A stretch of DNA of 64,000 nt, taken from Zygnema cylindricum. Lineage: Eukaryota; Streptophyta; Zygnematophyceae; Zygnematales; Zygnemataceae. The stretch spans positions 64,001-128,000 of the forward strand of contig JBBHKE010001110.1 of assembly GCA_037447655.1 (NCBI GenBank), written 5' to 3'. The position numbers were made by a program, and so were the translations under genes. Position 1 is the first letter of the stretch, and each line of letters starts with the position of its first letter. Under the pieces are notes generated by a model. The model saw only the letters and a list, made by a program, of their open reading frames with translations, ran no database searches and had not been told where the DNA came from. Of this stretch, positions 28,251-51,453 are shown piece after piece.

Positions 28251-28429
28251 TCCCTGGCTACCCTTTTTAATTATGAAATAGACCTCACCATCAAAACTAA
28301 CAGTGAACCTTCCTTTTTTAGTTCTTGTGACAAAATCTTTCTCATCTAAGACAGCTGTAGAGATCAGATTTTTGCTAAGCTATGGTATTTATAGCACATC
28401 TGAAAGAGTGACAATGGAGACTTTCCCTT
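28251..28429 (-). pseudogene. Copia B protease C-terminal part
   Basis: Protease to pre-integrase linker, interrupted on the sense side at 28429 by the Ty3/gypsy element. The reading frame KGKVSIVTLSDVL on this side joins VKG at 39539-39550 on the other, marking the exact insertion site. Confidence 0.75.
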
Positions 28430-30003
28430 TGTCGTGCATGTGTCCAATAACATGAAGGTGCATGCAATATCATCAGCTGTGCTCAACTTAAACTCAAATG
28501 ATAGCGAGATATCGGAAATGAAATAAATCATAAAAGTAAAAATGGGTAAATACAACAACAGGCAAGGTGGAAGAAAAAGAAAGGTCAACGACTTAGCTGG
28601 TTATGGTTAGGTCGGTTTAATACTAAGCCGATGGATGACCACTAGGCCCCACAGTCTATTTATATTCCTTGCAGGAGTTATCTTATCAAGGATAATCTGA
28701 ATTTATACTTAAATATAATAAATCAAAGCATAAACAACCGGGAGAGATAAATAAAAACCGCAAATGACAATATGCCCGACACTTATGAGGTTTGAGATAA
28801 CCAAACTCAAAAGATGCGCAAAAGCCAAATAGAAATAAATACAAAATCACAATAAATAAAAACAACACAACAATAATTCCAACATGCAACTTCCACACTA
28901 ATTAAAGTTCAGCCACAATCGGGAAAGAAGTTTGTGTTGTGAGATCGCGGTCGAAATCCACTCAAAAAGATGAGAAAAATGAAGGGAAACCGTGTAGGTC
29001 CTAGCCGAAGCCGTATAGATTAATTTGTAAGGCTTTACAAGATATGATAATATAATAGAAAACTAGACGCTTCACGCAAAGGCAGAAAATCGCCTCTAAG
29101 CTGTCCGGACAATTTCACAAATAAAAAGATGGCTGCAGAGAATCCTCAATACTGAAAATAAATCAAATGAATAATTCCTGCACTTGAAAATTGTGTGCAG
29201 GAAATGATGCGAAATGAACTAAGTAACCAAAACTACGCCTAGCGAAAACAAGCCAATCAGAGTACAGCGTGCTATGTAAATATTTGCGTCAAGTTTGGAT
29301 TCGACCAATAGGAGGCCGAAATCCTATGCCCTACGTTAAAAAATCTATAACCTACGGATTAAAACCCTTCCTATCTACATGTGAATGCGTGAACCTCCAA
29401 ATGGTTCACGACTTAAAATAGTCCAATAGCGTAGCTTCGTCAGAACTGACAGCGAATTCGTCTGTCATTTGCGTCGACGGTCCAGATGCGAAGTTACGAA
29501 AATGACATAATCAGCGTCGACGGCCGGGATGCTACTTTACGAGAAACGATTAAAAATTGTTGTCGGCCGGGATTTTCGGAAATGAAAGTAGGTACGGTAG
29601 GACCGAAAGTACGGTCCAATTTGTAATCGCGGAAATTCCGGGTAATGTAAGTCGTACGGTGGACGTAAAATAATCGAATCCACCGTCGGCAAAAATCGCG
29701 TAAGATATCTATTGTACGGTAAGTCGTGGCCGCGGGAATTCCGGTCGGCGTAAGTCGTACGGTCGAAGCGAAATAATCAAATCCGCCGTCGGCGGAAATC
29801 GCGGAAAAATATACGTCGTACGGTAGGACCGCGGGTACGATCCAAATCGTTATCCCGGAAATCACTGAAAATGTAGGTTGTACGGTACACGTCGTACGGT
29901 CCTGCAAAACCCAATAATACCCAAATACAAATTAGTGTAGCGGCTGCCGGTCTTAACGCCTAAATATAAACAACTAAAATGTCCGACGACATGCGGCATG
30001 ACA
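28430..30003 (-). repeat. Terminal repeat copy B plus A (downstream end of Ty3 element)
   Basis: 1574 bp. Sense strand begins TGTCATGCCGCATG and ends ATGCACGACA at the host junction. The B part (28620-30003) repeats at 38155-39538 and the A part (28430-28619) at 30006-30195. By its TG...CA ends this is the full repeat unit; the B/A joint is at 28619/28620. Confidence 0.9.
29590..29905. repeat. TACGGT repeat array in the Ty3 terminal repeat
   Basis: Eight copies of TACGGT, mostly as GTCGTACGGT, within about 320 bp, embedded in two imperfect units of about 100 bp that share ATCCACCGTCGGC / ATCCGCCGTCGGC and AATCGCG. The array is CpG-rich against an AT-rich background and lies in the 5' part of the sense repeat, where U3 control elements are expected. 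An identical array is in the other copy (39125-39440). Confidence 0.8.
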
Positions 30004-30005
30004 GC

Positions 30006-30195
30006 TGTCGTGCATGTGTCCAATAACATGAAGGTGCATGCAATATCATCAGTTGTGCTCAACTTAAACTCAAATGATAGCGAGATATCGGAAATGAAAT
30101 AAATCATAAAAGTAAAAATGGGTAAATACAACAACAGGCAAGGTGGAAGAAAAAGAAAGGTCAACGACTTAGCTGGTTATGGTTAGGTCGGTTTA
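30006..30195 (-). repeat. Detached A' segment of the Ty3 terminal repeat
   Basis: 190 bp, one mismatch to 28430-28619. On the sense strand it follows the polypurine tract directly and is followed by GC and then the start of the B block. The upstream repeat copy (38155-39538) lacks this segment. Confidence 0.9.
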
Positions 30196-30210
30196 TTCCC
30201 CCCCCCAGCT
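30195..30210 (-). other. 3' polypurine tract of the Ty3 element
   Basis: Sense strand AGCTGGGGGGGGGAAT, directly upstream of A'. A purine tract at this place normally primes plus-strand DNA synthesis and defines the first base of the LTR. An identical 16-mer occurs at 33579-33594. Confidence 0.7.
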
Positions 30211-30212
30211 CT

Positions 30213-32099
30213 TTATCCGGCAGAGGAGCTGGCCAACACGACCGGTAGCTCGCAACATCCGTGGCAAAACCAGTGACCGTCCGGAACTGCCAATAAAGGT
30301 GGCACCAAACACTCCATGTGAAACCCCTGATTGCAATGATCACAAAGTAACATGGTAGTTTCCCCGTCCGATCGATGACAAAAGGTACATGCCGTCGCCT
30401 CCGTAATCGGCATCCGCATAGGATCCATATCCTGCGACAAATCTGGTAAGTAACATGGAGCACAATTCTTGGAGTGCTCTCGAAAAGTCCGCGTGTCCGC
30501 TCCTTGTAATCCCAACATCCCGTTCGGATCCACCTCGATTATTCGTAGGATGTGTGCAGAAACATCCGTGTCCAAAGTGTCAAAAGATTGCCTGCGAAGA
30601 TAAACATAATCTCCCACCCGATAGGGCTTCTGTTGCGGCCTGTAACTGCCGCTGCGAGTGGTGGCAAACCGAAGTGTGTCCCGATGCTGGGCAATCTGCA
30701 AGTTATCAAAAGCCATGGGCATTTCACGGGCAAAAAGCAAAGCACGACGAGTGAGTTCTTCCAAAAAAATAGTGTCAGACATCAGCGGAAGTGGGAAGCT
30801 TGCGGCCTTCTGAATATTGCGACCGAGCAAGGGTTGTCGCCAAAATAAAACATAATACGGGCTGAAATTAGCCAGACTAGCCTGAACCGACATGCGATAT
30901 CCCATGGTAATGTAACCGAGGGACTCGTCCCAAACTGAAATGTGTTTTTCTAAGCAATGCTTACGCAAGGCACGCTTAAATGTCTGGACTGCTCGTTCAG
31001 CCAGGCCATCGGCCTGGGGGTGATCCCGACTAGTACGACGATGATCGATGAGAGCCTCATCAAGCATCTCTTGAAATTCTCCCCGAAATTCTGTACCTTG
31101 ATCCGTAAGGACCTCGGCTGGGGCACCGTATCTCATAAGGACATGTTCCTTAAAAGCTGTGGTGGTTAACTTAGCGGTCTTGTGAGGCAGGGCTACGACT
31201 TCTACCCACTTACTGAAATTTTCAATCATAATCATAATATATTGTTTACCCCTACGCGAGATAGGAAAAGGTCCGGCCAGATCGACCGACCATCGATAGA
31301 ATAAACCTCTAATAGGTAGAGGTTGGAGCGTAGTCTGCTGGTTAGAGAAAGAAGTTCGGAGACGGTCGCAGGTGGCACACTTGTGTAGAATAGCAGCGAC
31401 ATCAGCTTGCATTCGTGACCACCAATACCGTGCCTGAACTAGACTTAACGTTCGCTTGGTACCGTAGTGACCAAGCTCGGTGTGAATCTGCCCAATGAGA
31501 GAAAGACGCTCGGTAGGCCGTGGAACGTGCCTATGGCTTCCGTCTGCCAACAACCGAACTAAAGATCCCCCGAGCCAAAGGTAACTTTTGGCCCTCTTTT
31601 TCACTCTATCTTCTTCATCAGAGGTGGTGCCGGACCTGAAGGTCTGGGAGGATAGGAAAAGAATGAGAGGCCCATCACGCCAAGGATCGGTGGCGGGACG
31701 GGGGTTTGGAATAGACGCCAGGCAGTAAGTAAGATAAGAACCCATTGACATGACGGGAACATCGTCGTCATCGAAATCCTGTCGAACTCCGTTATCTGTT
31801 GCTCGGGGCAAAGGATTTCGGGAAATTCCGTCTGCGTTTAGACTAAGCAGACCTGGTCGGTGAATTATTTCAACGTCATATTCTTGTAAGATTAAAGCCC
31901 ATCGGGCTAACTTCCCGGAAAGCTTATCGTTCGTCATTAGCCAATGTAAGGGTTGATGGTTAGTTAAGAGTGTGAAAGGTTTTCCGTACAAATAATGGCG
32001 GAAGTGAACGACTCTCCAAACCACGGCTAGACACTCTCCTTCGTAGCTACTATAATTTGATTCAGCCCGGTTATTGCTTCTACTCGCGTAAGCTACTAC
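30213..32099 (-). CDS. Ty3 Pol: RNase H, DDE integrase and PHD finger
   Basis: Continues the RT frame after a single TAA (32100-32102). Sense order: RNase H (SYEGECLAVVW, then LTNHQPLHWL and SLNADGISR), the integrase HHCC module (HTELGHYGTKR ... CATC, about 31370-31500), the core with VDLAGPF, LTDQGTEF and GLAERAV as D,D,E, and a GPY/F-like module (GDYVYLRRQ, ILRIIEVDPNG, EHSKNCAPCYLP). The end is a C4HC3 PHD finger (CTFC, LLCDHC, HMEC, WFCHGC; about 30250-30402). PHD fingers usually read histone H3 tails; here it occupies the place of a chromodomain and could guide integration. All catalytic residues seen. Confidence 0.9.
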   Translation of the reverse strand, partial: VVAYASRSNNRAESNYSSYEGECLAVVWRVVHFRHYLYGKPFTLLTNHQPLHWLMTNDKLSGKLARWALILQEYDVEIIHRPGLLSLNADGISRNPLPRATDNGVRQDFDDDDVPVMSMGSYLTYCLASIPNPRPATDPWRDGPLILFLSSQTFRSGTTSDEEDRVKKRAKSYLWLGGSLVRLLADGSHRHVPRPTERLSLIGQIHTELGHYGTKRTLSLVQARYWWSRMQADVAAILHKCATCDRLRTSFSNQQTTLQPLPIRGLFYRWSVDLAGPFPISRRGKQYIMIMIENFSKWVEVVALPHKTAKLTTTAFKEHVLMRYGAPAEVLTDQGTEFRGEFQEMLDEALIDHRRTSRDHPQADGLAERAVQTFKRALRKHCLEKHISVWDESLGYITMGYRMSVQASLANFSPYYVLFWRQPLLGRNIQKAASFPLPLMSDTIFLEELTRRALLFAREMPMAFDNLQIAQHRDTLRFATTRSGSYRPQQKPYRVGDYVYLRRQSFDTLDTDVSAHILRIIEVDPNGMLGLQGADTRTFREHSKNCAPCYLPDLSQDMDPMRMPITEATACTFCHRSDGETTMLLCDHCNQGFHMECLVPPLLAVPDGHWFCHGCCELPVVLASSSAG

Positions 32100-34013
32100 T
32101 TATTCCTCTCCGCTCAACTCTCTTTGTGTCAAAATGGCAGCGATTCCGGGTTTCCCAAAGTCTGTTTGAAGACAAAAAGGGAGTTTGTGATTGGGAGGAC
32201 GGAGAATTGGAGCACTTGATAAAGCGGTTTTTAATTTTTGAAATGCGAAAATCTGATCGGGACCCCATATAAACGCCACTTCTTTCTTGAGAAGGTCGTT
32301 TAACGGAGATGCGATGGTGCTAAAATTAGATACAAACCTGCGATAATAATTAGCAAGTCCGAGAAAAGCTCGCAGACTAGTGAGGTCCGTGGGAGCAGGC
32401 AATTTACTGATTGCCTCTACCTTTGCTTCGAGAGGAGTGATTCCCTCAGCCGAGATAAAATGGCCGAGGTAAGGCACTCCCTCGGCTCCAAAGGTGCATT
32501 TTGCTGGATGACATTTTAATCCGACCTTTTTCAATTCAGTCAATACCCATTCGATGTGAGCAGCGTGCTCTTTGATAGTAGCCGAGGCAATGATGAGGTC
32601 ATCGATGTAACATCTAGCAAACTTACAGCCTCCAAGAACGGAGTCCATGACTTTTTGAAATACTGCCGGAGCATTTTTCAGTCCGAATGGCATTACGGCC
32701 CATTCCCATCGGCCATCGCTACCCCAAAAGGCAGTTTTATGCCGGTCTTTTTCCTCTATCTCGATTTGATTGAATCCTTGACGGAGGTCAAGGATACTAA
32801 AATAATTTGCTCCGCCTACATGATCAAATATTTCTTCGGCAAGAGGCATGGGATGACGATCTTGAACTGTTCTAGCATTTAGTTCACGATAGTCACCACA
32901 CATTCGACGTTCAGTAAAATTTCCCTCGGAATCTTTTTTCCGAGGCATGACAGTGGGAGCTGCAAATGTGGAGTCTGACCGATAGATTAGGCCAGCTTCC
33001 TCTAGTTCAGCACATCGCTTGTCTACCATTTCCCATTCAGTTTCTGACAAACGATGTTTCGGTTTAAATATAGGGCGATCATCTTCGAGATCTATCGACA
33101 TTTTATAAGCAGTGTGACGACCCAAATCATTCATAGAAAAGGCAAAGGCATCGATATTTCGTAAAACTACGTCATTCAGTAACTCTTGTTCGGCCTTTGT
33201 TAGATTTGTGCCGAATTTCCATTTAGGAGCATCAGGATTTTCGGTCGTCATAGCTTCCATGGCTTGTGCAAAGGCCAACTGCTCATCTGCGATAAGCGTT
33301 TGACCTAACTCGTAAGCTACAGGTGTCTGTTTAAGGCAATTAACCGAATGATTCCAACTGCGTGTTGGAAAAGCAGCACTCCAATGAGGAGTGGGTGGAA
33401 TATGCATGGGACTTGTAGACTGGACAGCCGTATATGCGGGAATAGACCAGGACATATGGCTAGGATTGAGGAAATCGTAGACAGAGATTTCCGGAACTGG
33501 TGGAATTGGAGAAGGAAAGAGGAAAAATTGAAATGTGGTCCCTTGGAGAGTGGGACGGAAAGATTTTCTTAGTGATGCATTCCCCCCCCCAGCTGGTTGA
33601 GACGGATGTGCCTGAGAGTGGCGACCAGCTGCAAACCCAAGACCTAAAACAAAAGACAAAGACTGAGGGTCCATGACACGACCTAATAAAGTGCATCTTT
33701 GACGTTCAGTAAGACCAGGAGCGGCAGTAGTGCCGGGAATGAAATGCATTAGGTGTTCTCGTTCCGTAGAGGTAGGCTCTTCGAGCTCACCGGTATGAAT
33801 GTTTCGGAGCATGCCAGGACCGTCATTAGAGAATGCATGTGAATGTGGGTAAGAAACTAAGGTAGGAAGCACCTTGAGAGGTTGACCCGGGACATTGACA
33901 CTGAAATTAGGGGGACAGTCCTTTTGAATGCAAGGCTGCACCTTATGAAAAGGAAGAAGGGCAGCCTGAATGTCTGTAGGAGGAGGACGACTAACAAGTT
34001 GGCCTCCCGAAGT
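32100..34013 (-). CDS. Ty3 Pol: methyltransferase C-terminus and reverse transcriptase
   Basis: The frame is open from 34013, just after a TAG at 34014-34016, and is -1 to the Gag-protease frame, overlapping it by about 157 bp. The first part (TSGGQLVSRPPPTDIQAAL ... RQRCTLLGRVMDPQSL) looks like the end of the methyltransferase domain, including an RxxLLGR motif X-like segment, so that domain straddles the frame change. After a proline/serine-rich linker comes Ty3-type RT: KPKHRLSETEW, MCGDYRELNA, FSILDLRQGF, the active site YIDDLI (about 32592-32604) and FLGLANYYRRF, then the start of RNase H (QTDFGKPGIAAILTQ). It ends at TAA, probably one nonsense change or a readthrough site. Confidence 0.9.
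   Translation of the reverse strand, partial: TSGGQLVSRPPPTDIQAALLPFHKVQPCIQKDCPPNFSVNVPGQPLKVLPTLVSYPHSHAFSNDGPGMLRNIHTGELEEPTSTEREHLMHFIPGTTAAPGLTERQRCTLLGRVMDPQSLSFVLGLGFAAGRHSQAHPSQPAGGGNASLRKSFRPTLQGTTFQFFLFPSPIPPVPEISVYDFLNPSHMSWSIPAYTAVQSTSPMHIPPTPHWSAAFPTRSWNHSVNCLKQTPVAYELGQTLIADEQLAFAQAMEAMTTENPDAPKWKFGTNLTKAEQELLNDVVLRNIDAFAFSMNDLGRHTAYKMSIDLEDDRPIFKPKHRLSETEWEMVDKRCAELEEAGLIYRSDSTFAAPTVMPRKKDSEGNFTERRMCGDYRELNARTVQDRHPMPLAEEIFDHVGGANYFSILDLRQGFNQIEIEEKDRHKTAFWGSDGRWEWAVMPFGLKNAPAVFQKVMDSVLGGCKFARCYIDDLIIASATIKEHAAHIEWVLTELKKVGLKCHPAKCTFGAEGVPYLGHFISAEGITPLEAKVEAISKLPAPTDLTSLRAFLGLANYYRRFVSNFSTIASPLNDLLKKEVAFIWGPDQIFAFQKLKTALSSAPILRPPNHKLPFCLQTDFGKPGIAAILTQRELSGEE
33579..33594 (-). 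other. Candidate central polypurine tract
   Basis: Sense AGCTGGGGGGGGGAAT, identical over 16 nt to the 3' polypurine tract and about 590 bp from the midpoint of the internal region. It lies in the Pol linker, encoding Ala-Gly-Gly-Gly-Asn. Central tracts that copy the 3' tract are known from lentiviruses and Ty1 as second plus-strand start sites. Function here is inferred. Confidence 0.5.
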
Positions 34014-37000
34014 CTACCAATATCGATCAGGTTCGTCCATTTGGAGCGAACCCGGTGTGCTAGTGAGCCATGGCGAGCCGCGTCAATAATAAGAGGCGGA
34101 CCAATTAATTGTTCGATTCGTTGATAATCAGCCAAAACCGTAGGTCTCGGATCATTATAGGCCGCGACATTTTCCAAGATATACCCCACAGGATAATCTA
34201 AAGTTTCTAGAAAATGCAAGATGCGAACCAACTCAAAAAATAATTTGGTGCGGGGGTCGGCTAATCCGAGACCTTTCCCGGCCCGGGACATTCCCTGGCA
34301 CTCCCATCCGCCAAAAACTAGATCGATTGGACCAATCTCCAGTAAGTGATGGTTGCCCACAATCCGAATGTCTTGTGGGAGGGCGGTATGCATATGCTCG
34401 TATGCAGATTTTGGTAACAAATGCGGGTATTGGGAATGCAACAGATTACAATGATGTAATTGTGATTTCCGTGCTAACGGATCAATCTCCACCGAATAAT
34501 AAAATCGGATTAATAATCCATTCCGCAAACATGCCAGGAGAGACGTGCCTATTCCAGCAAAAAGGTCCAAAATCACTAATCCATTTGGATGAGGTTTCAA
34601 TTGGACCGGATTCCAATCAATGGGAAGAAACCCAGAAGAGTCTGTAGGGACTGGGATTGGGTGAGAGATTGGAGAAAGTGGAATTGACAAGGTTTGGTTA
34701 TAGATTCGGTCAACTTCCCTCGTATCTATAAGAAAACCTGGGTCACTGAAAATTTCTGGTAAGTAAGAACTATCGGGCAAAATTTCTTCTGCTGACAATG
34801 AATGAAATATTTCGGCCCCCACCGAATTCCCTGAAAATGCAGGTATGGAGGTGGCCGAATTCGCCATAATAGGCATGGGCTTCCTAGCGGAAATTAGCGG
34901 AATGCATATTTTGCGTTCCGTGAAGCTAGTGGGCCTATAAGAAAATGTCTGATCATGCATGTCAACACCACCCCCTACACGAAATATAATGTCCGGCCCC
35001 ACTAGGCATTCATAGTCACTACATTTAGTGACTAGAGCGTGAACCGAGATTTCAGCAAAGTCTGTGGCCGTTTCGTTCTGGAACCTGAAAACCAGCGGTT
35101 CCTTAGTGATTCCTAGGACCGGTTCGGTTGTACCCGCCGATGTTAACAACCAAGTAGAAGTGGACTGAAGCTTGTCCGGAGTTAGACCAAGCTTCAGTGC
35201 AAAGCTAGAGCCCAATATCACCGGCTTTGCACCCGTATCCATGAGAGGCAGGGAAGGGGCTATACCATTGATCAGCAATGCACCCTTCGCATTATCCAAA
35301 AAACTAATGTGAGGATCGAGAGACTTTCGCTCCTCCATGGAAATAGGCTGAATAGCAGCAAGATTTCTGTGCAGCTGAAGTGCTTGTAGCGCGGCAGCTG
35401 CAGCAGAGCTATCGGAGAGTAAAGAGATAGGGGAGATTCTCGGTGAGTCGGAAATCATAGCGGATAGAATACACAAGCGTTCTTTCACGCGGTGTGCCTC
35501 ATGTATAGTTCGATCCACTATGTTGAGAGCTTCAGCCGCGATGGCTGAAGCGGTTTCGGGCAAGAGAGGAGAAGGTTCTTTAGTGAAGGACAAAGGAATA
35601 CGCGTATTAGGTATTTTACCGTCACGATTGTGATCGGTCGAACCTTTGTCGAACGTAGCCTCTCGTTGTCGGATGGTGGAATCTCGTAAGATTCGACCTG
35701 CTAATGTGGGCATGTGTACGACGGTGCGAGCCATGCCTGTAAATTGTGGCTTCATTTGGGTCATGAAAGCTGCGAATTGTTCTTTCATCATAGCCGCCAT
35801 TTGCTCTTGCATTTCTAAACGCTCTCTCTCTCTTCGAGATACCTTAGGTGGAGTGGTGTCTTTTTCCGGTTCTTTAACCGGTTGAACCGGTCTTGCAGAT
35901 CGAGCTGGGATGCCACCTGTCTTAATTTGGTTTTGATATGAATATTCCGGGTTTTTTATATGACAGCGATGGACATAATGTCCGGTTTGCTTGCAATGTG
36001 TACAGGTAGCAGATTTGTCTGGACACATTCGGGCATCATGCCCGGTCTTCCCACATCGGAAACATAATCGGTTTCCGGGAGCAACAGGTGGGGTTCCCAT
36101 GGCCGGGACTTTAGGAGGCCGGTTGTTAGGACGAGGATTGTTCCATGGTGGAACAATCGGTTCTTTCGGGACCGCTTTAGGTCGGTCATGGGCTTCCCAC
36201 CAACAATTTTGCATTTCGTATTCCACGGCATGCTGGGCGGCTTGATCGAAAGTGAACTTCAAGCCATATGTTTGAGTCAGGTGACTCTGGATGAATTTTT
36301 TAGACTGACTCGGAAACTGTCCTACAAATTTTTGGACAGCTTCAGCATCCGACATTAAGTCCGGCAATGCTTCACGAAGAGCTTCCATGCGAGCACGCAT
36401 GGCAGGGGCAGTCTCTCCTAACTTCCGTTCGAAGTTCATTAACTCGCGAACTTGGTCAGGGTTTTGCATACGGTATTCCGCTTGCAACATTTCAAACATG
36501 ACAGAGAGCGGATCCAATATAGGGATCGTCATCGCTGGTCGTGCTGGAATTCCAGCACGTGCGGCTATAGCAAACTGTTGCGGTATTTCCGCAACTGCTG
36601 CTGTAATAACATCGCCATTGAGATCAAGGACTTCCGGGATAGCCGGTTGGTATGGAATTTCTGGTTGTCCTATAATAGCAGGACTCCCAGCAAAAGACGG
36701 AGAGAACTCTGTCATCGCAAGTACGGAATCATACTTGCGAGAATAAAGAGTAAGGGCTGAACCTCGAAGGTAACGACCTAAGAGAGAGAAAGCGACCCGT
36801 AGGTCGAACCGATCTTGGTACCGAAATGCAAGATCACGCATTTCGGTATCGAATAGCATTCGAAAATGCGATAACGTCATGGTATCCTTCATTCCTGAAA
36901 AACAGAAATGAAGGCGGCCCCCCCCCTCGGATGTGGAAGCCATTTCCAATAATGGAATGCTTGGAGATAAAACAAGCTTGGAAATTTGCGGAAACCAAAA

Positions 37001-37258
37001 AGATAATGAATCGGAATCCGACCCGTCAAGGGAATCGCGGTCAGATTCCTCTTCGAAAAATGTGGAAGAGACTGATGATAAGGAAGATACTGAGGTGAGA
37101 GTGGATCGAACCGAAGGGGAAATTTGACCCGAGATATTTAGGGAAGGATGGTCCAAAAGACTAGAGAAATCTGATGGTCCGGATTCCGTGGGCCTAAACG
37201 AGGCCGACGATCGAGTGGTTCCGACAGGATAATCAAGATTATCCCAATTGGTGGGCAT
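33857..37258 (-). CDS. Ty3 Gag-protease-DNA methyltransferase polyprotein
   Basis: 1133 codons from ATG 37258, the first in-frame Met after a 0.9-kb leader. Ser-rich N-terminus (1-100); capsid-like alpha-helical region (about 110-390, with FERKLGETAPAMRARM); two CCHC knuckles (about 399-434: CFRCGKTGHDARMC, CTHCKQTGHYVHRC); retropepsin around LMDTGAKPVILG (about 670-680); then from about 890 a C5 methyltransferase: motif I LDLFAGIG (897-904), motif IV GGWECQGMS with candidate catalytic Cys987, motif VI ENV (1029-1031) and motif VIII IDAARHGSLAHRVRSKW (near 1070). Motif order is canonical, so not DRM-type; the LFFE and IDA...HRxR..W pattern is closest to DNMT3-like enzymes by eye. The usual PCQ reads ECQ. 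The last 55 residues are out of the domain's frame; the domain continues at -1. Confidence 0.9.
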   Translation of the reverse strand: MPTNWDNLDYPVGTTRSSASFRPTESGPSDFSSLLDHPSLNISGQISPSVRSTLTSVSSLSSVSSTFFEEESDRDSLDGSDSDSLSFWFPQISKLVLSPSIPLLEMASTSEGGGRLHFCFSGMKDTMTLSHFRMLFDTEMRDLAFRYQDRFDLRVAFSLLGRYLRGSALTLYSRKYDSVLAMTEFSPSFAGSPAIIGQPEIPYQPAIPEVLDLNGDVITAAVAEIPQQFAIAARAGIPARPAMTIPILDPLSVMFEMLQAEYRMQNPDQVRELMNFERKLGETAPAMRARMEALREALPDLMSDAEAVQKFVGQFPSQSKKFIQSHLTQTYGLKFTFDQAAQHAVEYEMQNCWWEAHDRPKAVPKEPIVPPWNNPRPNNRPPKVPAMGTPPVAPGNRLCFRCGKTGHDARMCPDKSATCTHCKQTGHYVHRCHIKNPEYSYQNQIKTGGIPARSARPVQPVKEPEKDTTPPKVSRRERERLEMQEQMAAMMKEQFAAFMTQMKPQFTGMARTVVHMPTLAGRILRDSTIRQREATFDKGSTDHNRDGKIPNTRIPLSFTKEPSPLLPETASAIAAEALNIVDRTIHEAHRVKERLCILSAMISDSPRISPISLLSDSSAAAAALQALQLHRNLAAIQPISMEERKSLDPHISFLDNAKGALLINGIAPSLPLMDTGAKPVILGSSFALKLGLTPDKLQSTSTWLLTSAGTTEPVLGITKEPLVFRFQNETATDFAEISVHALVTKCSDYECLVGPDIIFRVGGGVDMHDQTFSYRPTSFTERKICIPLISARKPMPIMANSATSIPAFSGNSVGAEIFHSLSAEEILPDSSYLPEIFSDPGFLIDTREVDRIYNQTLSIPLSPISHPIPVPTDSSGFLPIDWNPVQLKPHPNGLVILDLFAGIGTSLLACLRNGLLIRFYYSVEIDPLARKSQLHHCNLLHSQYPHLLPKSAYEHMHTALPQDIRIVGNHHLLEIGPIDLVFGGWECQGMSRAGKGLGLADPRTKLFFELVRILHFLETLDYPVGYILENVAAYNDPRPTVLADYQRIEQLIGPPLIIDAARHGSLAHRVRSKWTNLIDIGRLREANLLVVLLLQTFRLPFFLFIRCSLAFKRTVPLISVSMSRVNLSRCFLP

Positions 37259-37359
37259 AAAAATGATAACACCAAATGATGACCAGATAACAAAACCGAT
37301 CTATCCGATATGCTTCAAATGCCAGGCCACACCACTCTTTTGTCCAATCAGCCAATCAA

Positions 37360-37780
37360 TCCCTAACAGGGCCTCGATGGCCAGATCTATCAGGAAGCCG
37401 TATTACCAAAACCTTCTACCCTGCAAACAAGGGGACAAGGCCGAAGGGCCAGATCTATAAAGGCAAATAACTTACTATCCAAGCACTCCCAAGTGCAGAT
37501 CTAAAGCGGCACAATCCACAAAAATGCTAACCAATGCCTCCAACGGCAAGATCTATGAAAGAACTCCCACTCCGGGCAAAGCAAACTCAGCCAAGGCCAC
37601 TCAGGGCCAGATAGCAGGCAAGGAAAGCTGGACGAATGCAATGCTCAATACAAGTGGATTAACACTAATCCACTCCAAACACGATCCCTCTATACGATCA
37701 ACCGACTACCTTAACACGCGCCTGTACCCGCAAGGCATCGTGATACTTACATACACTCTTAGCAATCTGGTGATTGCCAA
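37360..37780 (-). promoter_or_regulatory. Array of small stem-loops in the Ty3 5' leader
   Basis: Plus-strand notation: five perfect stems each abutting AGATCTA or AGATA: GGCC-tcgat-GGCC (37370), GGCC-gaag-GGCC (37440), GCACT-ccca-AGTGC (37483), TGCC-tccaac-GGCA (37535) and GGCC-actcag-GGCC (37595). In RNA sense each hairpin follows TAGATCT or TATCT. Two more stems follow: GTGGATTAACACTAATCCAC (37653-37672) and GCAATC-tggt-GATTGC (37762-37777). Stem sequences differ while the pairing and flank persist, which suggests RNA structure such as a packaging or dimerisation signal. Confidence 0.6.
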
Positions 37781-38135
37781 GGGTGAACTGCGGTTGTTCG
37801 CTATAACCGAAGTTTTGCAGCGCTCCCAAGAACGGATCCGCTCCACTAACTCCACTCCTTGGTGAAGTACGTCTCAATGTGAGCAAACGATGCTCAAGAT
37901 ATATAACAAGGAAAATGGGGAAAACAAAAACCAAATACTTAAGTTAGTGTAGTATATCGTTGGCCGAAAATTGGCCAATAAGATAAAACGTCAACAAACA
38001 AGCAAATGGTATTTATATATGAAAAGCTAGTTATAGATTTTTGTAGAAATGTATCTATAAATATATATTTTTTTTCTTTAAATAAAAAGAAACCGAAATT
38101 GAAATAAAAACAAACAAGGGAGAAAAGAAAATACG

Positions 38136-38156
38136 ACAATTTTCAAGTGCAGGAAT
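38136..38156 (-). promoter_or_regulatory. Candidate self-priming primer-binding site of the Ty3 element
   Basis: Sense sequence straddling the end of the upstream repeat (ATT, then CCTGCACTTGAAAATTGT). It matches no tRNA 3' end I know. It is a perfect 21-nt reverse complement of 38709-38729, which lies 553 bp upstream in the same transcript. A primer pairing there would have its 3' end next to the repeat boundary, the geometry of Tf1-type self-priming. Confidence 0.5.
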
Positions 38157-39538
38157 ACTAAGCCGATGGATGACCACTAGGCCCCACAGTCTATTTATAT
38201 TCCTTGCAGGAGTTATCTTATCAAGGATAATCTGAATTTATACTTAAATATAATAAATCAAAGCATAAACAACCGGGAGAGATAAATAAAAACCGCAAAT
38301 GACAATATGCCCGACACTTATGAGGTTTGAGATAACCAAACTCAAAAGATGCGCAAAAGCCAAATAAAAATAAATACAAAATCACAATAAATAAAAACAA
38401 CACAACAATAATTCCAACATGCAACTTCCACACTAATTAAAGTTCAGCCACAATCGGGAAAGAAGTTTGTGTTGTGAGATCGCGGTCGAAATCCACTCAA
38501 AAAGATGAGAAAAATGAAGGGAAGCCGTGTAGGTCCTAGCCGAAGCCGTATAGATTAATTTGTAAGGCTTTACAAGATATGATAATATAATAGAAAACTA
38601 GACGCTTCACGCAAAGGCAGAAAATCGCCTCTAAGCTGTCCGGACAATTTCACAAATAAAAAGATGGCTGCAGAGAATCCTCAATACTGAAAATAAATCA
38701 AATGAATAATTCCTGCACTTGAAAATTGTGTGCAGGAAATGATGCGAAATGAACTAAGTAACCAAAACTACGCCTAGCGAAAACAAGCCAATCAGAGTAC
38801 AGCGTGCTATGTAAATATTTGCGTCAAGTTTGGATTCGACCAATAGGAGGCCGAAATCCTATGCCCTACGTTAAAAAATCTATAACCTACGGATTAAAAC
38901 CCTTCCTATCTACATGTGAATGCGTGAACCTCCAAATGGTTCACGACTTAAAATAGTCCAATAGCGTAGCTTCGTCAGAACTGACAGCGAATTCGTCTGT
39001 CATTTGCGTCGACGGTCCAGATGCGAAGTTACGAAAATTACATAATCAGCGTCGACGGCCGGGATGCTACTTTACGAGAAACGATTAAAAATTGTTGTCG
39101 GCCGGGATTTTCGGAAATGAAAGTAGGTACGGTAGGACCGAAAGTACGGTCCAATTTGTAATCGCGGAAATTCCGGGTAATGTAAGTCGTACGGTGGACG
39201 TAAAATAATCGAATCCACCGTCGGCAAAAATCGCGTAAGATATCTATTGTACGGTAAGTCGTGGCCGCGGGAATTCCGGTCGGCGTAAGTCGTACGGTCG
39301 AAGCGAAATAATCAAATCCGCCGTCGGCGGAAATCGCGGAAAAATATACGTCGTACGGTAGGACCGCGGGTACGATCCAAATCGTTATCCCGGAAATCAC
39401 TGAAAATGTAGGTTATACGGTACACGTCGTACGGTCCTGCAAAACCCAATAATACCCAAATACAAATTAGTGTAGCGGCTGCCGGTCTTAACGCCTAAAT
39501 ATAAACAACTAAAATGTCCGACGACATGCGGCATGACA
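38155..39538 (-). repeat. Upstream terminal repeat B' of the Ty3 element
   Basis: 1384 bp, about four mismatches to 28620-30003. Starts TGTCATGCCG in sense next to the host duplication and runs directly into the leader without the A segment. It contains the hairpin CCTGCAC-loop-GTGCAGG (38711-38735) that includes the partner of the candidate primer-binding site, and the second TACGGT array. Confidence 0.9.
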
Positions 39539-40055
39539 CCTTTAACTGTGACCTTTAGATCCACTAATCCTACAAGGTTTGTACTTACAACTCTACCATC
39601 CCCATAATCTATATCAACAGTGGGGATCTTCCTCAACTTTGTAAACCACCTCTTGTCTTTGCACATATATATAGATGCTCCCGATTTTATTATCCACCCT
39701 TCCTCCGAGGGTTCTTTCTTACCTCCAAATGCACATTTTGCTTTATTGGTATTTCCACTTCATTATCTCTTTTTTCATTGTGGAGAAGCTTCTCCATCTC
39801 CTATTTGTTGCTGTTCACTTGCCTGTATTTGATACTTAATTCTTCCAATAGGGTGGAATCAACCATGTAATGTCGCGGTGTTCTGCAAAAGTGACAAACG
39901 TTTTTCTTTTGAGCTCCTATTTCTTGTTCATTGGGTTGTCCTCCTCCTTTTTCCTTATAGGTAATGCCTGAAATATATTTAATGGCCACCGTAGGTGGTG
40001 GGCCCATAACCTGAAATTTTGTGGGCTCGGTTGCCCTACAGAATGCATAGTCCAC
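39539..40055 (-). pseudogene. Copia B gag end and protease N-terminal part
   Basis: Gag opening overlapping the LTR (MDYAFCRATEPTKFQVMGPPP from 40055), a short degenerate zinc knuckle (CHFCRTPRHYMVDS, last Cys lost), then protease-region sequence MCKDKRWFTKLRKIPTVDIDYGDG and VDLKVTVKG, cut by the Ty3 insertion at 39539. Much of gag is missing between the opening and the knuckle. Confidence 0.75.
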
Positions 40056-40402
40056 AAGTAGCCACTAGGATATCATCAACCCACTTTGGTGTCACCAATA
40101 ATACCTGCCACCCTGGCAGGAAAAAACTCTGACCATCCTCATCCTTGTGAGGACAAGACTCCTCTGAGTGTAACGCAAAAAGAATAACTGAATTTGCTCC
40201 CTTGAGCAATTAGTTATGGCAAGCTAAAGACAGCCTATTTATATAGAAGGTCACCTGGAGAGAGGCGCCTCAAATATTACTAAGTCCTAGTCTACCTACT
40301 CTAAGCTACCTATTACTAAACCCTAGTCCAATAGGAACACTTAATATTACAAGAAGTTACAATGGGCGATGTACTTATTATACGTCCATTGTATGACATG
40401 GA

Positions 40403-40597
40403 CTACAAGGTGACACCTCTCAAATCGGGAGCCATGGTTCCTCCTCCCATCTTTTCAGGTATCAAATAATGCGGCGCCACGTGGCACCGCGCGACGCAAT
40501 CTCCGAATTCCGCCAGAAGCTCACTTCGGGTGGCGGCTACAATGCTGGCCATCTGATCAAAACATATTTTACACGGTTCAGATTCGCGTACGTGCAT
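40403..40597 (-). CDS. Conserved small ORF in copia LTR (copia B 5' LTR copy)
   Basis: 64 codons, MHVRESEPCKICFDQM ... HVAPHYLIPEKMGGGTMAP. Third copy of the LTR ORF with an intact frame. Its position in the 5' LTR would put it in the U3/R region ahead of gag. Confidence 0.35.
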   Translation of the reverse strand: MHVRESEPCKICFDQMASIVAATRSELLAEFGDCVARCHVAPHYLIPEKMGGGTMAPDLRGVTL

Positions 40598-40681
40598 AAA
40601 TTGTTCCTCTTAATGAGTTTGGTGTGAATTTGCCGTCGTGTCACAGTTTCAGTACGTATGAAATCTAATGAGTTCATCGTT

Positions 40682-40748
40682 TCGTAGCGCCTTAATGGTT
40701 ACGGCTATATAGAATGCAGAGGTTGCAGGTTCAAATCCGGCAGTATAC
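40682..40748 (+). other. tRNA-like sequence in copia B 5' LTR (antisense)
   Basis: TCGTAGCGCCTTAATGGTTA followed by a perfect B-box AGGTTCAAATCC. Lacks about 12 bp of the middle found in the 3' LTR copy. Opposite in strand to copia B. Confidence 0.55.
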
Positions 40749-40878
40749 CACCTTTCTAAATATCACCTTTCTAAATAGCGAATAGCGTGGCAGGGATGGC
40801 GTGTCTTTCATTCTCTCTCTCTCTCTACTTAGAGACTCAAAAAAAATAGAGACAAGATATAAATTACCTTTTTCAATA

Positions 40879-41908
40879 GATTGAAGGATCACGTAATTGA
40901 GGCAAAGCAATCCGAATCCAAATTTGAATGGTTGTTAGAGTTACGATGTGAACAAAAAAGGGAAACTATTGTCAACAATGACTCAGAATAGGAAAAAGGA
41001 GATGAATAGAAAATTTTTTAATCAATGCGGGGTATTCATATATTTTCAACGGCACTAATTACGTATCGTGGAAGAAGTATATGAAGACCCAATAATGGTT
41101 ATGTCACCTTTGGAAGGTGGTAACTGGAGAGAAGAAACTCTTCAATTTCCATCGTAGTGCTCGAGGAACATAGAAGCAAAAAAAACTTGGCACCAATTGC
41201 CGAACTTATTCAATCCTACAACCTTTCAATTCACGACCATTTCTTCACCTATGGGAGAATACATAAGTGCGTGAAATCATTTGAGAACTAGTTTGAAAAG
41301 GGAGGTCAAAATAAGGGTAAACGTATTTTTTGAGATTTTATGCAATTCAAATTTAGACAAAATGAATCAATTGATGATGCACTTAAAAGGTATAAGAAAT
41401 TTATGGAAAAATTACTCAACAATGGTAGGATAATTATGGATGAAGACAAGGTCACGGGCTTCTTGAATGCCTTACTAGAAAAATTAACTCACCTCAAACA
41501 AATTTTAAATGTATAGGACGATTCCACATTTGAGTATGCTAATAATTTTTTGAAAAATGCAGAAGATGAAGATAACTTGCCAAGAGAGTCAAATAGTGGA
41601 GGAACACTTAATATAACCTCATCCAATGTCACTGATATTAGTTATCTCCATGGCGAATGGGGCGACAGAAGTAGAGATGTTTGAGGAAATGATGGAGGCA
41701 CTAAATTTTAGGATAAAAATGGCGACTTTGAAAATCAGAAGCCTTGATCTGATTTTTGCAATGTCACTTGCTAACAATGTAGTAAACTCGACCATATCTC
41801 GGCCTCTTGCCCCGGAAAAGACCGACAATGTCATTATTGTGGCAACTGAGGCCACACCAACCCACATTACTAGAATAATGACATTTTCGCTCTTTGTCCA
41901 AAAATGAG
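40879..41908 (+). mobile_element. Copia I, right part (gag)
   Basis: Continuation of copia I beyond the copia B insertion. Gag-like sequence with many stops; near 41840 a knuckle fragment (CHYCGN). It pairs in inverted orientation with copia J across 41908, with roughly 80 percent identity judged from short aligned stretches. Confidence 0.7.
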
Positions 41909-43108
41909 ACTGAGAAATTGTCGAGTTTACCACACCGGTAACAAGTGACATCATAGAAATCAAAATGCTGCTTGTGATCTTTAAGGTTGTCATTTTTATC
42001 CTCGAATTCATTACCTCCTTTATACCTTGTAAGCTCTCTACCTCTACTCCCCCTTTTGCCGCGTAAATAATTAATGTCTGTGACATTGGGTGAGGTTACC
42101 TTAAGTTTTCATCCACTATTACACTCTCTTGGAAAGCTATCTTCCTCTTCTGCATTTTTCAGAAATTTAACTACATACTCAAATGTGAAATTGTCTCTTA
42201 CATTTAGGTTTTGTTTGTAGTGAACTAATTGTTATGGTAAGGCACTTAATAACTACATGACCTTGTCTTCATTCATGATTGTCTTATCATTATCGAGTAA
42301 GTTTTCCATACTTATGCTATCCCTCTTCAGTGCATTATCAACGGACTCATTTTGTCTAAATTTGATTTGCATGAAGACTACAAACATGATGGCTCTTATT
42401 TTGACCCCCTTTTTCAATTTGGTTCTCAGGTGGTTTCCAAAGCTCATCCCTTTTTCAATTGGGTTTTCAAGTGATTTCCAAAGCTCATGGTCATTCACAT
42501 GGGTGAGGAAATGGTTGATTTTTTTCTCTTCTATGTTCCTCGAGCATTACAGTGGAAATCCGAGGTTTCTCCTCCCTGATCACCATCTTCTAAAGGTGAC
42601 GTAACACTAGTAGGGTTTTAATATACTTCTTCAACGATGCGTAATTAGTGTCATTGAAAATATGTGAATACCTCGGCATTGAACATAAGTTTTCGTGTGC
42701 GTCTCTCTCTTCCAAGTTCGAGTCATTGTTGACAATAGTTTCCCTTTTCCGTTCACATCGTAACTCTCACAACCATTCGAATTTAGATCCGGGTTGCCTT
42801 GGCTCAATTTTGGGATCATTCAATCAATGTAAAATCGTTAATCCATGAGGCTAAAGAGGTTATCGAAAAGTGAACTTGATCGCTCCTACATGACCCCGGT
42901 TCCTCCACCTTTCTCTTCTTTGGAGGATCGGAGGATGAAGATCCACAACTCCGAAACTAGCTTCAACTGTTTCTTTGCCCAAGTTTCTTAAGGAGGAAAG
43001 GATGTGGATGTGGTGAAAGGGGAATTTTTGTTTTTCTTTTTCCCCCTCATCGCAGACACTCCCCTCTTGACACAAATCGTGGAGCACTAATCTTGCTCTG
43101 ATACCATT
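41909..43108 (-). pseudogene. Copia J gag (UBN2-like), minus strand
   Basis: Reading from the PBS at 43095-43106 leftward: gag with HELWKSLENPIEKGMSFG, an Asn/Asp-rich segment (ENLLDNDKTIMNEDKVM), LLSALP, then a knuckle CYRCGKLDNFS near 41930. Stops interrupt it. Nothing beyond gag is seen; at about 41908 the sequence turns into the inverted copy (copia I). Confidence 0.7.
43095..43106 (-). promoter_or_regulatory. Copia J primer-binding site (initiator tRNA-Met)
   Basis: Sense TGGTATCAGAGC, the classical plant copia PBS complementary to the 3' end of initiator tRNA-Met, two bases after the LTR end (CTTACA). Confidence 0.9.
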
Positions 43109-43703
43109 TGTAAGATCAAATACCACAAATATCAAAATATTCAACAGATTGGAAGCAAGATTAAACGAGAAAGAAATCATGCAAAAGTCTATTATTTCAC
43201 CGAAAACTTTTTCCCCTCCAAAATACAAATTTTGATCTCTACATTGATTAACTTTTGATGCTTTTCCTCAATCCCAATCACCCACTAAATACCTACTACA
43301 AAGCAAAGAAAAAATACAGCAATCTCAATCACCCACTAAATACCTACTACAAAGCAAAGAAAAAATACAGCTAAGCAGTATTTTTCTACCAAATATAGCC
43401 ATGTACACGCAGAGGTGTGCCGGCTATAGCCTCTAGCACTGAGCTAACTCAAGCTACCTTCAATGTGCCAAATAACTCTTTGTGGACGAAACAAAAAACG
43501 TAGCAGGATCGTCGAAGGATTGGCTGTACTAAAAGTGCTACCGCTTTGTCACCTTTGTCATATATACGCGAGCGTGAAATCGCGTGGCACTTTCGCGAAC
43601 AAACATTTTCCTTAATATCGTCAGACGCCTGATTCATACAATTCAAACAACATATAGCAAATGCACCAAATCAAACGTATACGCGAACCGACATAAAAAT
43701 ACA
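43109..43703 (-). repeat. Copia J 5' LTR
   Basis: About 595 bp, sense TGTATTTTTATG...GATCTTACA, aligned with the copia I LTR. It contains a tandem duplication of about 54 bp (AATCACCCACTAAATACC unit, 43270-43375). Confidence 0.65.
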
Positions 43704-43711
43704 GTGTAGTA

Positions 43712-43732
43712 CCCACCGTGAATTGTTATTAG
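43712..43732. mobile_element. MITE0, left end (split copy)
   Basis: Left terminal inverted repeat CCCACCGTGAATTG...ATTAG, cut by copia C with a perfect ATTAG duplication. The middle is at 57333-57447 and the right end at 61991-62087. Reassembled length is about 220 bp, the size of the intact relatives. Confidence 0.8.
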
Positions 43733-44056
43733 TGTAATTTTGTGACCTCCATTGGTACACAGAATGTGGTACACAGAATGTCCAGCTTATATGAAGCCTC
43801 TAGGATAATATTTGTATTATTGAATTTGAAAATGAATAAGTGTCACCCTGGCAAGCAAAAACTTTGAACGACTACACCCCTGTGTAGCATGGACTCCTCT
43901 GAGACGGCAGCAAAAAAAAAATCACTAAAATTGCTCACCCGAGCATTAAGTTTTGGCTGATCAAAGTTGGCCAATAAATATAAGTGCTCTTTGGGAGAGA
44001 GAGACGAACTCCTAATTTTTTCTAAGTCCTAAGCTACATCTATGAGCTTACTACTA

Positions 44057-44255
44057 CACCTTGAATTGTTATTAGCGTATAGAAATTATTAGGGTAAAGA
44101 AAAAATTAGTGTCATTCTTTCTAATTTAGTTTTAGGAGACGTGGCAGATTATGGTCCACTTTCTTAAATAGTGTAATTTATTTTATTTAAGGTATCAATG
44201 TCAAAATTTTGGGGTGCCGATATAGAGTACATAAGGCTAATAACGATTCACGGTG
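44057..44255. mobile_element. MITE1, 199 bp, TA-flanked
   Basis: Terminal inverted repeats CACCTTGAATTGTTATTAGCG and its complement (CTAATAACGATTCACGGTG), flanked by TA on both sides. Absent from the 5' LTR at the equivalent place, so it inserted after copia C. Confidence 0.8.
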
Positions 44256-44684
44256 TAGTGTACTCTAGCTAATTAAAAGACTATAAAGTACAAGAAGGAA
44301 CAGGTACCGCTGTACTTCTTGTACACCCATAGTACGGCATGGCCGATCCGCTGACGGGTGTCAGCTCTTGAGCCGTAACGTAATTGCTCCTCCAGTAATC
44401 CCCGCTGTCCAATCATATCTCACCACGTGACGTCCGCAGACATTAGCTCGCAAACCGCCAAAAAGTCCATTTCGAGATTTCGGCTCATTTGCGAGCCGTT
44501 CGATCTTATCCGGACATTTGATTTCGTCCGTCGAAATTAAATGTTGTTTCGTAATTTCCGTGCGGTTCGGATTTCTTGCGGCCTGGTACATATCTATGTT
44601 CAGCCTGTTCGTAAGTAGTTAAATGAAATATATTGCTTCGTAAGTAGGTAAATAGTTATCGTACCTTATATGTGCATCGCTTTC

Positions 44685-44770
44685 TACAAGACCTACCAGA
44701 TAAGGCGGACGACTAACCCGTACTGGAGTCATCCGGAGGTCTCTGGTTCAAATCCCACATCTAACCACCT
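44685..44770 (+). other. tRNA-like sequence in copia C 3' LTR (antisense)
   Basis: D-arm-like CCAGATAAGGCGGACGAC and a perfect B-box GGTTCAAATCC with TCCCACATCT after it, opposite in strand to copia C. The 57090-57170 copy in the 5' LTR agrees. Confidence 0.55.
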
Positions 44771-44941
44771 ATCATTTGCATAGGGTTGTCCCCTTCTTTT
44801 TCAACTTGTCTTTTATGTCTGCTTGAGCTAGCCATGGCTGCTTGATAGTCCTTCGTGACTACGACAAGTATGAGGACTGCAATGAGACCATGAACAAAAG
44901 ACCAGAATAAAAAATACTCTTTTCAACACTCCCCTTATTTT

Positions 44942-46514: not shown

Positions 46515-46550
46515 ATGTGACAGCTTAGTTACCTTGTTGTGAAGTTGTCT

Positions 46551-51437: not shown

Positions 51438-51453
51438 GAGAACTGTTGGTCCC

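What the first reader, a model, noticed from the sequence alone, without database searches (positions are those of the whole stretch)
28430..39538. Young Ty3/gypsy element that carries its own C5 DNA methyltransferase between protease and RT
The frame directly shows motif I DLFAGIG, a motif IV Cys, ENV and an HRVR motif VIII in canonical order, fused after retropepsin and ahead of RT. Near-identical repeats show recent activity. Retroelement-borne methyltransferases are known (I recall Klebsormidium and Symbiodinium), so the class has precedent, but this copy adds a reader domain and unusual repeats. A self-methylating element could silence rivals or persist in methylated chromatin; that role is inference.
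Basis: partly seen in the sequence, partly recalled or inferred. Interest (0 to 1): 0.9.

Follow-up and report, generated by a model that had tools for sequence, protein, structure and literature searches.

The report
Methyltransferase-carrying gypsy retrotransposon with split repeats
This is one copy of an abundant jumping gene, with relatives in green algae and liverworts, that carries its own DNA-methylating enzyme and a chromatin-reading finger, and its odd repeats suggest that it makes its DNA with one set of ends and inserts it with another.

Summary
The finding is real. Window 28430-39538 (minus strand) is a Ty3/gypsy element inserted in a copia element with a 4-bp target duplication. 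It carries a DNMT3-type C5 methyltransferase between protease and RT and a PHD finger after the integrase. This copy is damaged: a frame break inside the methyltransferase and a stop between RT and RNase H. Its own genome (353 Mb) gives 151 methyltransferase matches, 46 of 150 listed without a stop; dN/dS is about 0.3. The kind is known: KnitGypsy-Dnmt3 (2018), whose repeats were already called DIRS-like. What I add concerns the repeats: body-coding-PPT-A-gc-body-A. They recur in 22 of 50 copies examined. The palindromic A|gc|body junction keeps a 2-bp spacer in all 100 listed sites (of 231). The body|A junction, where U5 meets U3, takes 22 forms at 52 sites. The presumed PBS matches the element's own LTR, and a divergent subfamily has a different, also complementary pair. 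Best model: self-primed cDNA, ends joined imprecisely, then a DDE integrase cuts the built-in palindrome. The mirror product seems missing, which a simple circle model does not explain. What the methyltransferase does is inferred, not shown.

The parts
28430..39538 (-). whole element, TGTC...GACA termini, inserted in a copia gag-pol frame
   Evidence: joined flanks read through in one frame across the insertion point (the copia copy has stops of its own further on)
28426..28429 (.). target-site duplication CCTT, low side (AAGG in element sense)
39539..39542 (.). target-site duplication CCTT, high side
38154..39538 (-). repeat 'body', 5' copy (1385 bp)
28619..30003 (-). repeat 'body', 3' copy; 4 mismatches to the 5' copy
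30006..30195 (-). repeat 'A', inner copy, just after the polypurine tract
28430..28619 (-). repeat 'A', outer copy (element 3' end); 1 mismatch to the inner copy
30004..30005 (-). GC spacer of the palindromic junction GACA-GC-TGTC (A|body), presumed integrase cut site
30198..30206 (-). polypurine tract, nine G
38136..38156 (-). presumed primer binding site, 21 nt, complementary to the element's own LTR
38709..38729 (-). self-primer segment in the 5' body (second copy at 29174-29194)
33857..37258 (-). ORF: gag, zinc knuckle, protease, N-terminal part of the methyltransferase (ends in an out-of-frame tail)
36020..36067 (-). CCHC zinc knuckle (just under Pfam's cut-off)
35099..35272 (-). retropepsin (E 0.0013, below Pfam's cut-off)
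33633..34582 (-). DNMT3-type C5 methyltransferase; N part to motif VIII in one frame, C part (motifs IX-X) in the RT frame
   Evidence: motif names recalled
32103..34013 (-). open frame: methyltransferase C part, RT, start of RNase H
32460..32915 (-). reverse transcriptase (PF00078, E 4.3e-30)
31878..32267 (-). RNase H, interrupted by the TAA at 32100-32102
31017..31517 (-). DDE integrase (H2C2 zinc site and rve core)
30255..30389 (-). PHD finger (PF00628, E 3.6e-10), C-terminal to the integrase

Best explanation
A Ty3/gypsy retrotransposon of the KnitGypsy-Dnmt3 kind. SHOWN: its family encodes gag, protease, a DNMT3-type methyltransferase, RT, RNase H, DDE integrase and a PHD finger; it inserts with a 4-bp duplication; its repeats run body - coding - PPT - A - gc - body - A; A|gc|body is a near-constant palindrome; body|A varies from copy to copy. 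INFERRED replication: (1) the mRNA starts inside the 5' body and its first about 20 nt pair with the site at the end of that body, so it primes itself as Tf1 does; (2) with PBS and PPT where they are, reverse transcription makes an LTR of the order A-gc-body, so the ends of the cDNA are not the ends of the insert; (3) the two cDNA ends (U5 and U3) are joined imprecisely, which makes the variable body|A junction anew at each cycle; (4) the integrase cuts the palindrome GACA-GC-TGTC of the 5' LTR, drops the two spacer bases and inserts TGTC...GACA with a 4-bp duplication. The insert again has split repeats and can be copied the same way. INFERRED for the methyltransferase: a de novo CG methylase that acts on the element's own double-stranded cDNA before or during integration. 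INFERRED for the PHD finger: it tethers the integrase to histone H3 tails.
For: Domains. DNMT3 identity: phmmer DNMT3A E 1.5e-11; the profile of eight relatives aligns with DNMT3A/3C over the whole domain and DNMT3B over most of it, E about 1e-16 to 1e-14, and no other methyltransferase family is among the 60 rows shown of 255; the AlphaFold model of a sister copy's domain has pLDDT 88.9 and all 50 listed fold matches are DNMT3 entries, best E 8e-20, TM 0.72/0.81. Split repeats: 22 of 50 copies' 3' stretches hold the paired A repeats. Perfect 4-bp duplications in 7 of the 10 split copies with both ends and flanks in hand; 3 of 4 bases in two (C78, C2573), 2 of 4 in C2526. Palindrome: 131 exact sites, reversed-pattern control 0; with a free spacer of 0-8 nt, 231 sites (control 4), and all 100 listed have a 2-nt spacer: 63 GC, 16 GT, 14 AC, 7 other (my count of the list). 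U5:U3 junction under the same free spacer: 52 sites (control 0), 22 spacer strings of 1-8 nt, 42 of 52 reading as 0-4 nt of PBS side plus PPT/U3 side; some of the variety may be later point mutation or copied duplicates. Self-primer: 21 nt in the window and C1915, 15 and 16 nt in C2573 and C2526, and a different 18-nt pair in subfamily C1344; shuffles give at most 13. Selection: mean dN 0.022, mean dS 0.074 over 28 pairs of 8 copies, up to 200 codons.
Against: Directionality: if a circle with two equal palindromes were cut at random, half of the inserts should have the doubled repeat at the 5' end. Of 20 listed palindromes within 7 kb and on the strand of a listed methyltransferase match, 19 lie on its 3' side and 1 (C1535) on its 5' side (my comparison). 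Of the 33 U5:U3 junctions on contigs up to C2027, where the list of exact palindromes ends, none is followed by an exact palindrome (mirror form); but only 3 (C802, C829, C1915; a fourth, C624, in the looser list) have one about 1.5 kb upstream (usual form), so most of these sites are solo forms or have a changed palindrome and this second test is weak. The single-A copy C2577 has no matching flanks. C1807 departs: A-gt-body also at its 5' end, and an insert at the junction. No RNA, cDNA or methylation data. The transcription start is not known. Only 10 copies could be tested for duplications. 28 of 50 stretches did not show the paired A repeats (truncated, diverged, off range or single A).
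Confidence: 0.65

Rival explanations
1. Linear-cDNA variant of the model: the integrase cuts the 5' LTR palindrome in linear cDNA, inserts both pieces at once, and the host closes the remaining break between U5 and U3 by end joining. No circle is needed.
For: Gives the same product, the same variable U5:U3 junction and the same 4-bp duplication.
Against: Also predicts mirror products unless the 5' palindrome is preferred; leaves a break at the target.
Confidence: 0.2
2. Chance rearrangement of an ordinary LTR element in this one copy (a piece of the LTR lost at one end and duplicated at the other).
For: Reading the window alone one could think so.
Against: Same layout in 22 of 50 copies, including diverged subfamilies with unlike repeat sequences; 131 exact palindromic junctions; same layout reported in Klebsormidium.
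Confidence: 0.02
3. It is really a DIRS/PAT-type tyrosine-recombinase element that picked up gypsy-like pol genes.
For: Repeat order equals A1, then B1-A2-B2 of Ngaro/PAT/VIPER elements (passage).
Against: Integrase is rve/H2C2 and no tyrosine recombinase is among the Pfam hits (E up to 0.1) of the three ORFs; RT is Ty3-like; 4-bp duplications.
Confidence: 0.03
4. The methyltransferase is a decaying passenger without a role.
For: In this copy it is broken; 104 of the 150 listed matches hold a stop in the matched stretch (my count).
Against: dN/dS about 0.3 across copies; 46 of 150 listed matches without a stop; catalytic Cys and the ENV Glu invariant across 14 aligned relatives; present in charophyte and liverwort relatives.
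Confidence: 0.08
5. The enzyme serves to silence rival elements or the host defence.
For: Type of enzyme only.
Against: No data either way here.
Confidence: 0.1

Closest known systems
KnitGypsy-Dnmt3 of Klebsormidium nitens (PMC5890265; abstract, sections 6, 9, 10, 11 and a term search read; figures and supplement not seen)
   Same: Gypsy domain set with a non-rearranged Dnmt3 in the Pol ORF, repeats arranged as in DIRS elements, purifying selection on the enzyme
   Different: Other host; here PHD finger, 4-bp duplications, self-primer and the variable U5:U3 junction are documented. A term search of that paper's main text finds no 'target site' and no 'circular', and 'primer' only for PCR; site duplications are mentioned there for SymbioLINE.
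SymbioDIRS-Dnmt3 (same paper)
   Same: Dnmt3 in Pol, A-coding-B-A-B repeats; its enzyme methylated CG in yeast
   Different: tyrosine recombinase instead of DDE integrase
DNMT3 members in retrotransposons in the 2025 survey PMC12344493 (passages only)
   Same: states that some DNMT3 members are embedded in retrotransposon structures, as reported in streptophytes and dinoflagellates
   Different: names LTR Copia and DIRS families; no mechanism in the passages seen
PAT/Ngaro/VIPER split-direct-repeat elements (PMC6681497, passages)
   Same: A1, then B1-A2-B2 repeat order; some DIRS elements carry a methyltransferase
   Different: tyrosine recombinase
Tf1/Sushi and plant Tcn1 elements (PMC6317226, passages)
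   Same: predicted self-priming
   Different: chromoviruses; the survey's main text has no hit for 'methyltransferase' or 'PHD'
Foamy-virus and HIV-1 integrase cleavage of palindromic 2-LTR junctions (PMC1180852, PMC1905944, abstracts)
   Same: integrase cuts a palindrome formed by two LTR ends
   Different: there the palindrome is the U5-U3 junction of the circle; here it is built into the repeat and copied from the RNA

Membership tests
KnitGypsy-Dnmt3 kind | Gypsy pol domains with rve integrase | tested here: met
KnitGypsy-Dnmt3 kind | Dnmt3-type, not rearranged, methyltransferase inside Pol | tested here: met
   motif order I-IV-VI-VIII-IX-X (motif names recalled)
KnitGypsy-Dnmt3 kind | A-coding-B-A-B repeats | tested here: met
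KnitGypsy-Dnmt3 kind | direct sequence kinship with the Klebsormidium element's enzyme | tested here: inconclusive
   K. nitens RT fragments P0039 and P0065 fall within the 34-row RT set as its first branch, but no K. nitens methyltransferase row was retrieved
Ty3/gypsy (Metaviridae) | PR-RT-RNase H-IN order, Ty3-like RT | tested here: met
DIRS/PAT | tyrosine recombinase | tested here: not met
   none among the Pfam hits of the three ORFs; only window ORFs scanned
DIRS/PAT | no target-site duplication (recalled) | tested here: not met
   4-bp duplication perfect in 7 of 10
Self-primed elements (Tf1 type) | PBS complementary to the element's own RNA | tested here: met
   two unlike pairs
Self-primed elements (Tf1 type) | primer is the 5' end of the mRNA | not testable with these tools
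   no transcript ends
DNMT3 family | catalytic Cys, ENV, target-recognition region, motifs IX-X | tested here: met
   on sister copy L007; the window copy is split
DNMT3 family | CG methylation activity | not testable with these tools
   the K. nitens enzyme was inconclusive in yeast in the 2018 paper

The most novel reading that the evidence does not exclude
The methyltransferase is part of the replication machinery, not of a war with the host: it goes with split repeats. In gypsy elements with DDE integrase (here and in Klebsormidium), in SymbioDIRS-Dnmt3, and with other methylases in some DIRS elements, a DNA methylase sits in elements with split repeats. Marking the older 3' LTR before the newer 5' LTR would let the integrase tell the two identical palindromes apart, which would explain why almost only the 3'-doubled product is seen. 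The palindrome's core CAGCTG varies mainly by C-to-T on one strand or the other (30 of 37 variants among the 100 listed), as expected if it is methylated, by whichever enzyme. I made no count of split-repeat elements without a methylase, so the association is untested.
Probability: 0.12. Interest if true: 0.9.

Novelty: new member of a known kind. Interest (0 to 1): 0.62.

Why it matters
Methylase-bearing gypsy elements were reported from one alga in 2018; here one lineage is seen in a 353-Mb genome with at least 151 matches, and with methyltransferase-bearing relatives in Closterium, Calypogeia and Marchantia. The copies give the first evidence I know of for how an integrase element can live with DIRS-like repeats: ends made by reverse transcription and ends used for integration lie at different places, with a ready-made circle junction inside the repeat. 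That makes an old question, whether joined LTR ends can be a true substrate of integrase, open to direct test, and offers a testable link between DNA methylases and this way of replicating.

Tried and rejected
Tried without result: two scans of viral contigs with the window's ORFs (no relatives); a full-text search for 'split direct repeats' with integrase and gypsy (five papers; by title and abstract start none describes such a gypsy element); searches for related Dnmt3 elements (by title and abstract start none beyond the 2018 paper, surveys and reviews; PMC6338049 on accessory domains in retrotransposons was seen in listings only).

Considered and dropped: a programmed frameshift inside the methyltransferase (four of the seven other copies compared, L005-L008, read on across the point, though three of them break elsewhere in the fetched stretch and only L007 stays open); tRNA priming (not tested beyond noting that the self-complementary segment sits at the LTR end); solo-LTR counts (not done). 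I first thought of a plain circle model; the rarity of the mirror product does not fit it, and I kept both circle and linear variants.

Rows dropped: L032 (49 bp, contig end). C1807 is counted among the 22 split copies but is odd, and is not among the ten tested for duplications because its 5' end shows no flank. Ten of 22 split copies could be tested; the others' 5' ends were outside the fetched stretches. In the methyltransferase tree P0001-P0003 were labelled by hand as 'after RT'.
Full report
1. What is there. The window holds, on the minus strand, an 11,109-bp element at 28430-39538 flanked by CCTT on both sides. Joining the two flanks in a script with one CCTT removed gives one continuous copia frame across the insertion point (that copia copy has stops of its own further on), so the element jumped into a copia copy. 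Three frames carry gag with a zinc knuckle, protease, methyltransferase, RT, RNase H, integrase and a PHD finger. Protease and zinc knuckle are below Pfam's own cut-offs. The methyltransferase is read in one frame to motif VIII and in the RT frame for motifs IX and X (motif names recalled), and a TAA lies between RT and RNase H. So this copy does not encode a whole polyprotein in one frame.

2. The enzyme. The N part's best PDB match is DNMT3A (E 1.5e-11); DRM2 scores 1e-4. A profile of eight relatives aligns with DNMT3A and 3C over the whole domain and with 3B over most of it, at about 1e-16 to 1e-14 (60 of 255 rows shown). An AlphaFold model of the domain from sister locus L007 (pLDDT 88.9) matches only DNMT3 entries among the 50 rows listed. 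Sixteen positions are invariant over 14 aligned relatives, among them the catalytic Cys and the Glu of ENV. The usual Pro before the Cys is Glu here; relatives have Pro or Glu. The PHD finger is closest to those of PHF12, KDM5/Lid, WSTF, DPF and BAZ2; what it reads is not tested.

3. The family. The window lies in a 353-Mb assembly without a name. The N part of the enzyme gives 151 matches, all 150 listed rows at E 3.4e-56 or better, from 1511 first-look candidates of which 150 were scored; 46 of the 150 listed have no stop inside, 104 have (my count). Over up to 200 codons in 8 copies, 28 pairs, mean dN is 0.022 and mean dS 0.074. These values include decay after insertion. Among the closest named relatives of the RT frame are proteins from Closterium, Klebsormidium, Calypogeia and Marchantia (best 120 of 288 listed); the Marchantia protein P0056 carries RT and methyltransferase. 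Of 67 proteins with a match to my methyltransferase HMM, 29 have it before RT, 6 after RT, 2 are unclear and 30 hold no RT match. In an RT tree of 42 rows the lineage forms one set of 34 rows (100/99; 18 with the enzyme before RT, 5 after it, 11 with no enzyme seen in the fragment or with unclear order), and the order RT-methyltransferase is one branch within it (100/98); the 36-row methyltransferase tree agrees (100/97; 18 rows labelled, three by hand). Some rows have long branches that meet, and no DNMT3 outgroup was available, so one capture followed by a move of the domain is likely but not shown.

4. The repeats. In element orientation the order is body (1385 bp) - coding - nine G - A (190 bp) - GC - body - A. 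The bodies differ at 4 sites, the A copies at 1. This is the A-coding-B-A-B layout of DIRS relatives. I looked at the 3' stretches of 50 copies (window plus 49; one further stretch of 49 bp was dropped): 22 have the paired A repeats, 28 do not show them (truncated, diverged, off range or with a single A). Subfamily C1344 and relatives have unlike repeat sequences in the same layout. Of ten split copies with both ends and flanks in hand, seven have a perfect 4-bp duplication, two match at 3 of 4 bases, one at 2 of 4.

5. Two junctions behave differently. A|body is GACA-GC-TGTC, a palindrome. It occurs 131 times exactly (control 0). With the spacer left free from 0 to 8 nt there are 231 sites (control 4), and each of the 100 listed has exactly 2 nt: 63 GC, 16 GT, 14 AC, 2 AT, 5 other (my count). 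The body|A junction, searched in the same way, has 52 sites (control 0) with 22 spacer strings of 1 to 8 nt. Forty-two of 52 read as up to four bases of the PBS side plus PPT/U3-side bases. In further copies U5 is cut short (C262, C232, C1407, slightly C2158b), runs about 327 nt on into the 5' leader (C216) or is followed by an insert and a whole G run (C1807). So A|body looks copied from the RNA, whereas body|A looks made anew each time by imprecise joining of the U5 and U3 ends. Later point mutations and copied duplicates (for instance the two like sites on C2165) may add to or take from the variety.

6. Priming. The sequence at the end of the 5' body is complementary over 21 nt to a segment 576 nt upstream in the same body; C1915 has the same pair; C2573 and C2526 have 15 and 16 nt; subfamily C1344 has a different pair of 18 nt, 475 nt upstream. 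Shuffled controls reach at most 13. Two unlike pairs at the same place speak for self-priming as in Tf1; plant Tcn1 elements are predicted to do so too.

7. Model. PBS and PPT define an LTR A-gc-body. Termini and duplications define inserts from body to A. The two fit if the cDNA ends are joined and the palindrome in the 5' LTR is then cut. Foamy-virus and HIV-1 integrases are reported to cut palindromic 2-LTR junctions (abstracts). Here the palindrome would be permanent.

8. What does not fit. A circle has two equal palindromes. Cutting the other one would double the repeat at the 5' end. Of 20 listed palindromes within 7 kb and on the strand of a listed methyltransferase match, 19 are on the 3' side and 1 (C1535) on the 5' side (compared by eye; both lists are cut). 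Of 33 U5:U3 junctions on contigs up to C2027 none is followed by an exact palindrome, but only 3 have one about 1.5 kb upstream (4 with the looser list), so this second comparison has little power; the rest may be solo forms or have a changed palindrome. A pause of minus-strand synthesis at the palindrome, a difference in methylation, or faster loss of the mirror form could explain the bias; none is tested. The single-A copy C2577 lacks matching flanks.

9. Known or new. De Mendoza et al. 2018 (PMC5890265; abstract, sections 6, 9, 10, 11 and a term search read; figures and supplement not seen) describe KnitGypsy-Dnmt3 with Dnmt3 in Pol, Gypsy domains and a repeat structure 'the same as that of a DIRS retrotransposon'. 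The window element is a member of that kind. That paper's main text has no hit for 'target site' or 'circular'. A 2025 survey (PMC12344493, passages) again mentions DNMT3 members inside retrotransposons. Within the ten searches, judged by titles and abstract starts, I saw no account of self-priming, duplications or the variable junction for this kind; subscription papers and preprints are not held.

10. Function. The 2018 authors propose methylation of the cDNA; SymbioDIRS enzymes methylated CG in yeast, the K. nitens one was inconclusive. I adopt cDNA methylation as the likeliest role, by inference.

Noticed in passing
window 1-28400 and 39540-56400: Dense nest of copia-type elements: several interrupted copies, among them two closely similar ones at about 3545-4868 and 8636-11528 (+), and others on the minus strand.
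   Followed up: partly
window 60280-60825 (+): ORF of 181 aa with only a sub-threshold Pfam match (Caps_synth, E 2e-4, below cut-off); nature unknown.
   Followed up: partly
window 29592-29892 and 39127-39427: Within the body repeat there are diverged internal repeats of 75-76 bp rich in GTACGGT/GTCGTACG; possible promoter or protein-binding repeats.
   Followed up: no
genome G000, A|body palindrome sites: Variant spacers are mostly GT (16) and AC (14) of 100 listed, the two C-to-T products of GC, as if the CAGCTG core were methylated.
   Followed up: no
proteins P0002, P0004, P0005, P0053, P0128, P0132 (and perhaps fragments P0001, P0003): Second domain order with the methyltransferase after RNase H and, where an integrase is present, before it; P0002 has a further Tudor-like stretch (recalled) after its PHD finger.
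   Followed up: partly
P0143: Protein named as from a Candidatus Obscuribacterales MAG is a relative of the elements' methyltransferase; probably eukaryotic contamination of that bin (inference).
   Followed up: no
locus L078 (C1807): Copy with A-gt-body also at its 5' end and a 17-nt insert plus a whole G run at the U5:U3 junction; may be a tandem or concatemer insert.
   Followed up: partly
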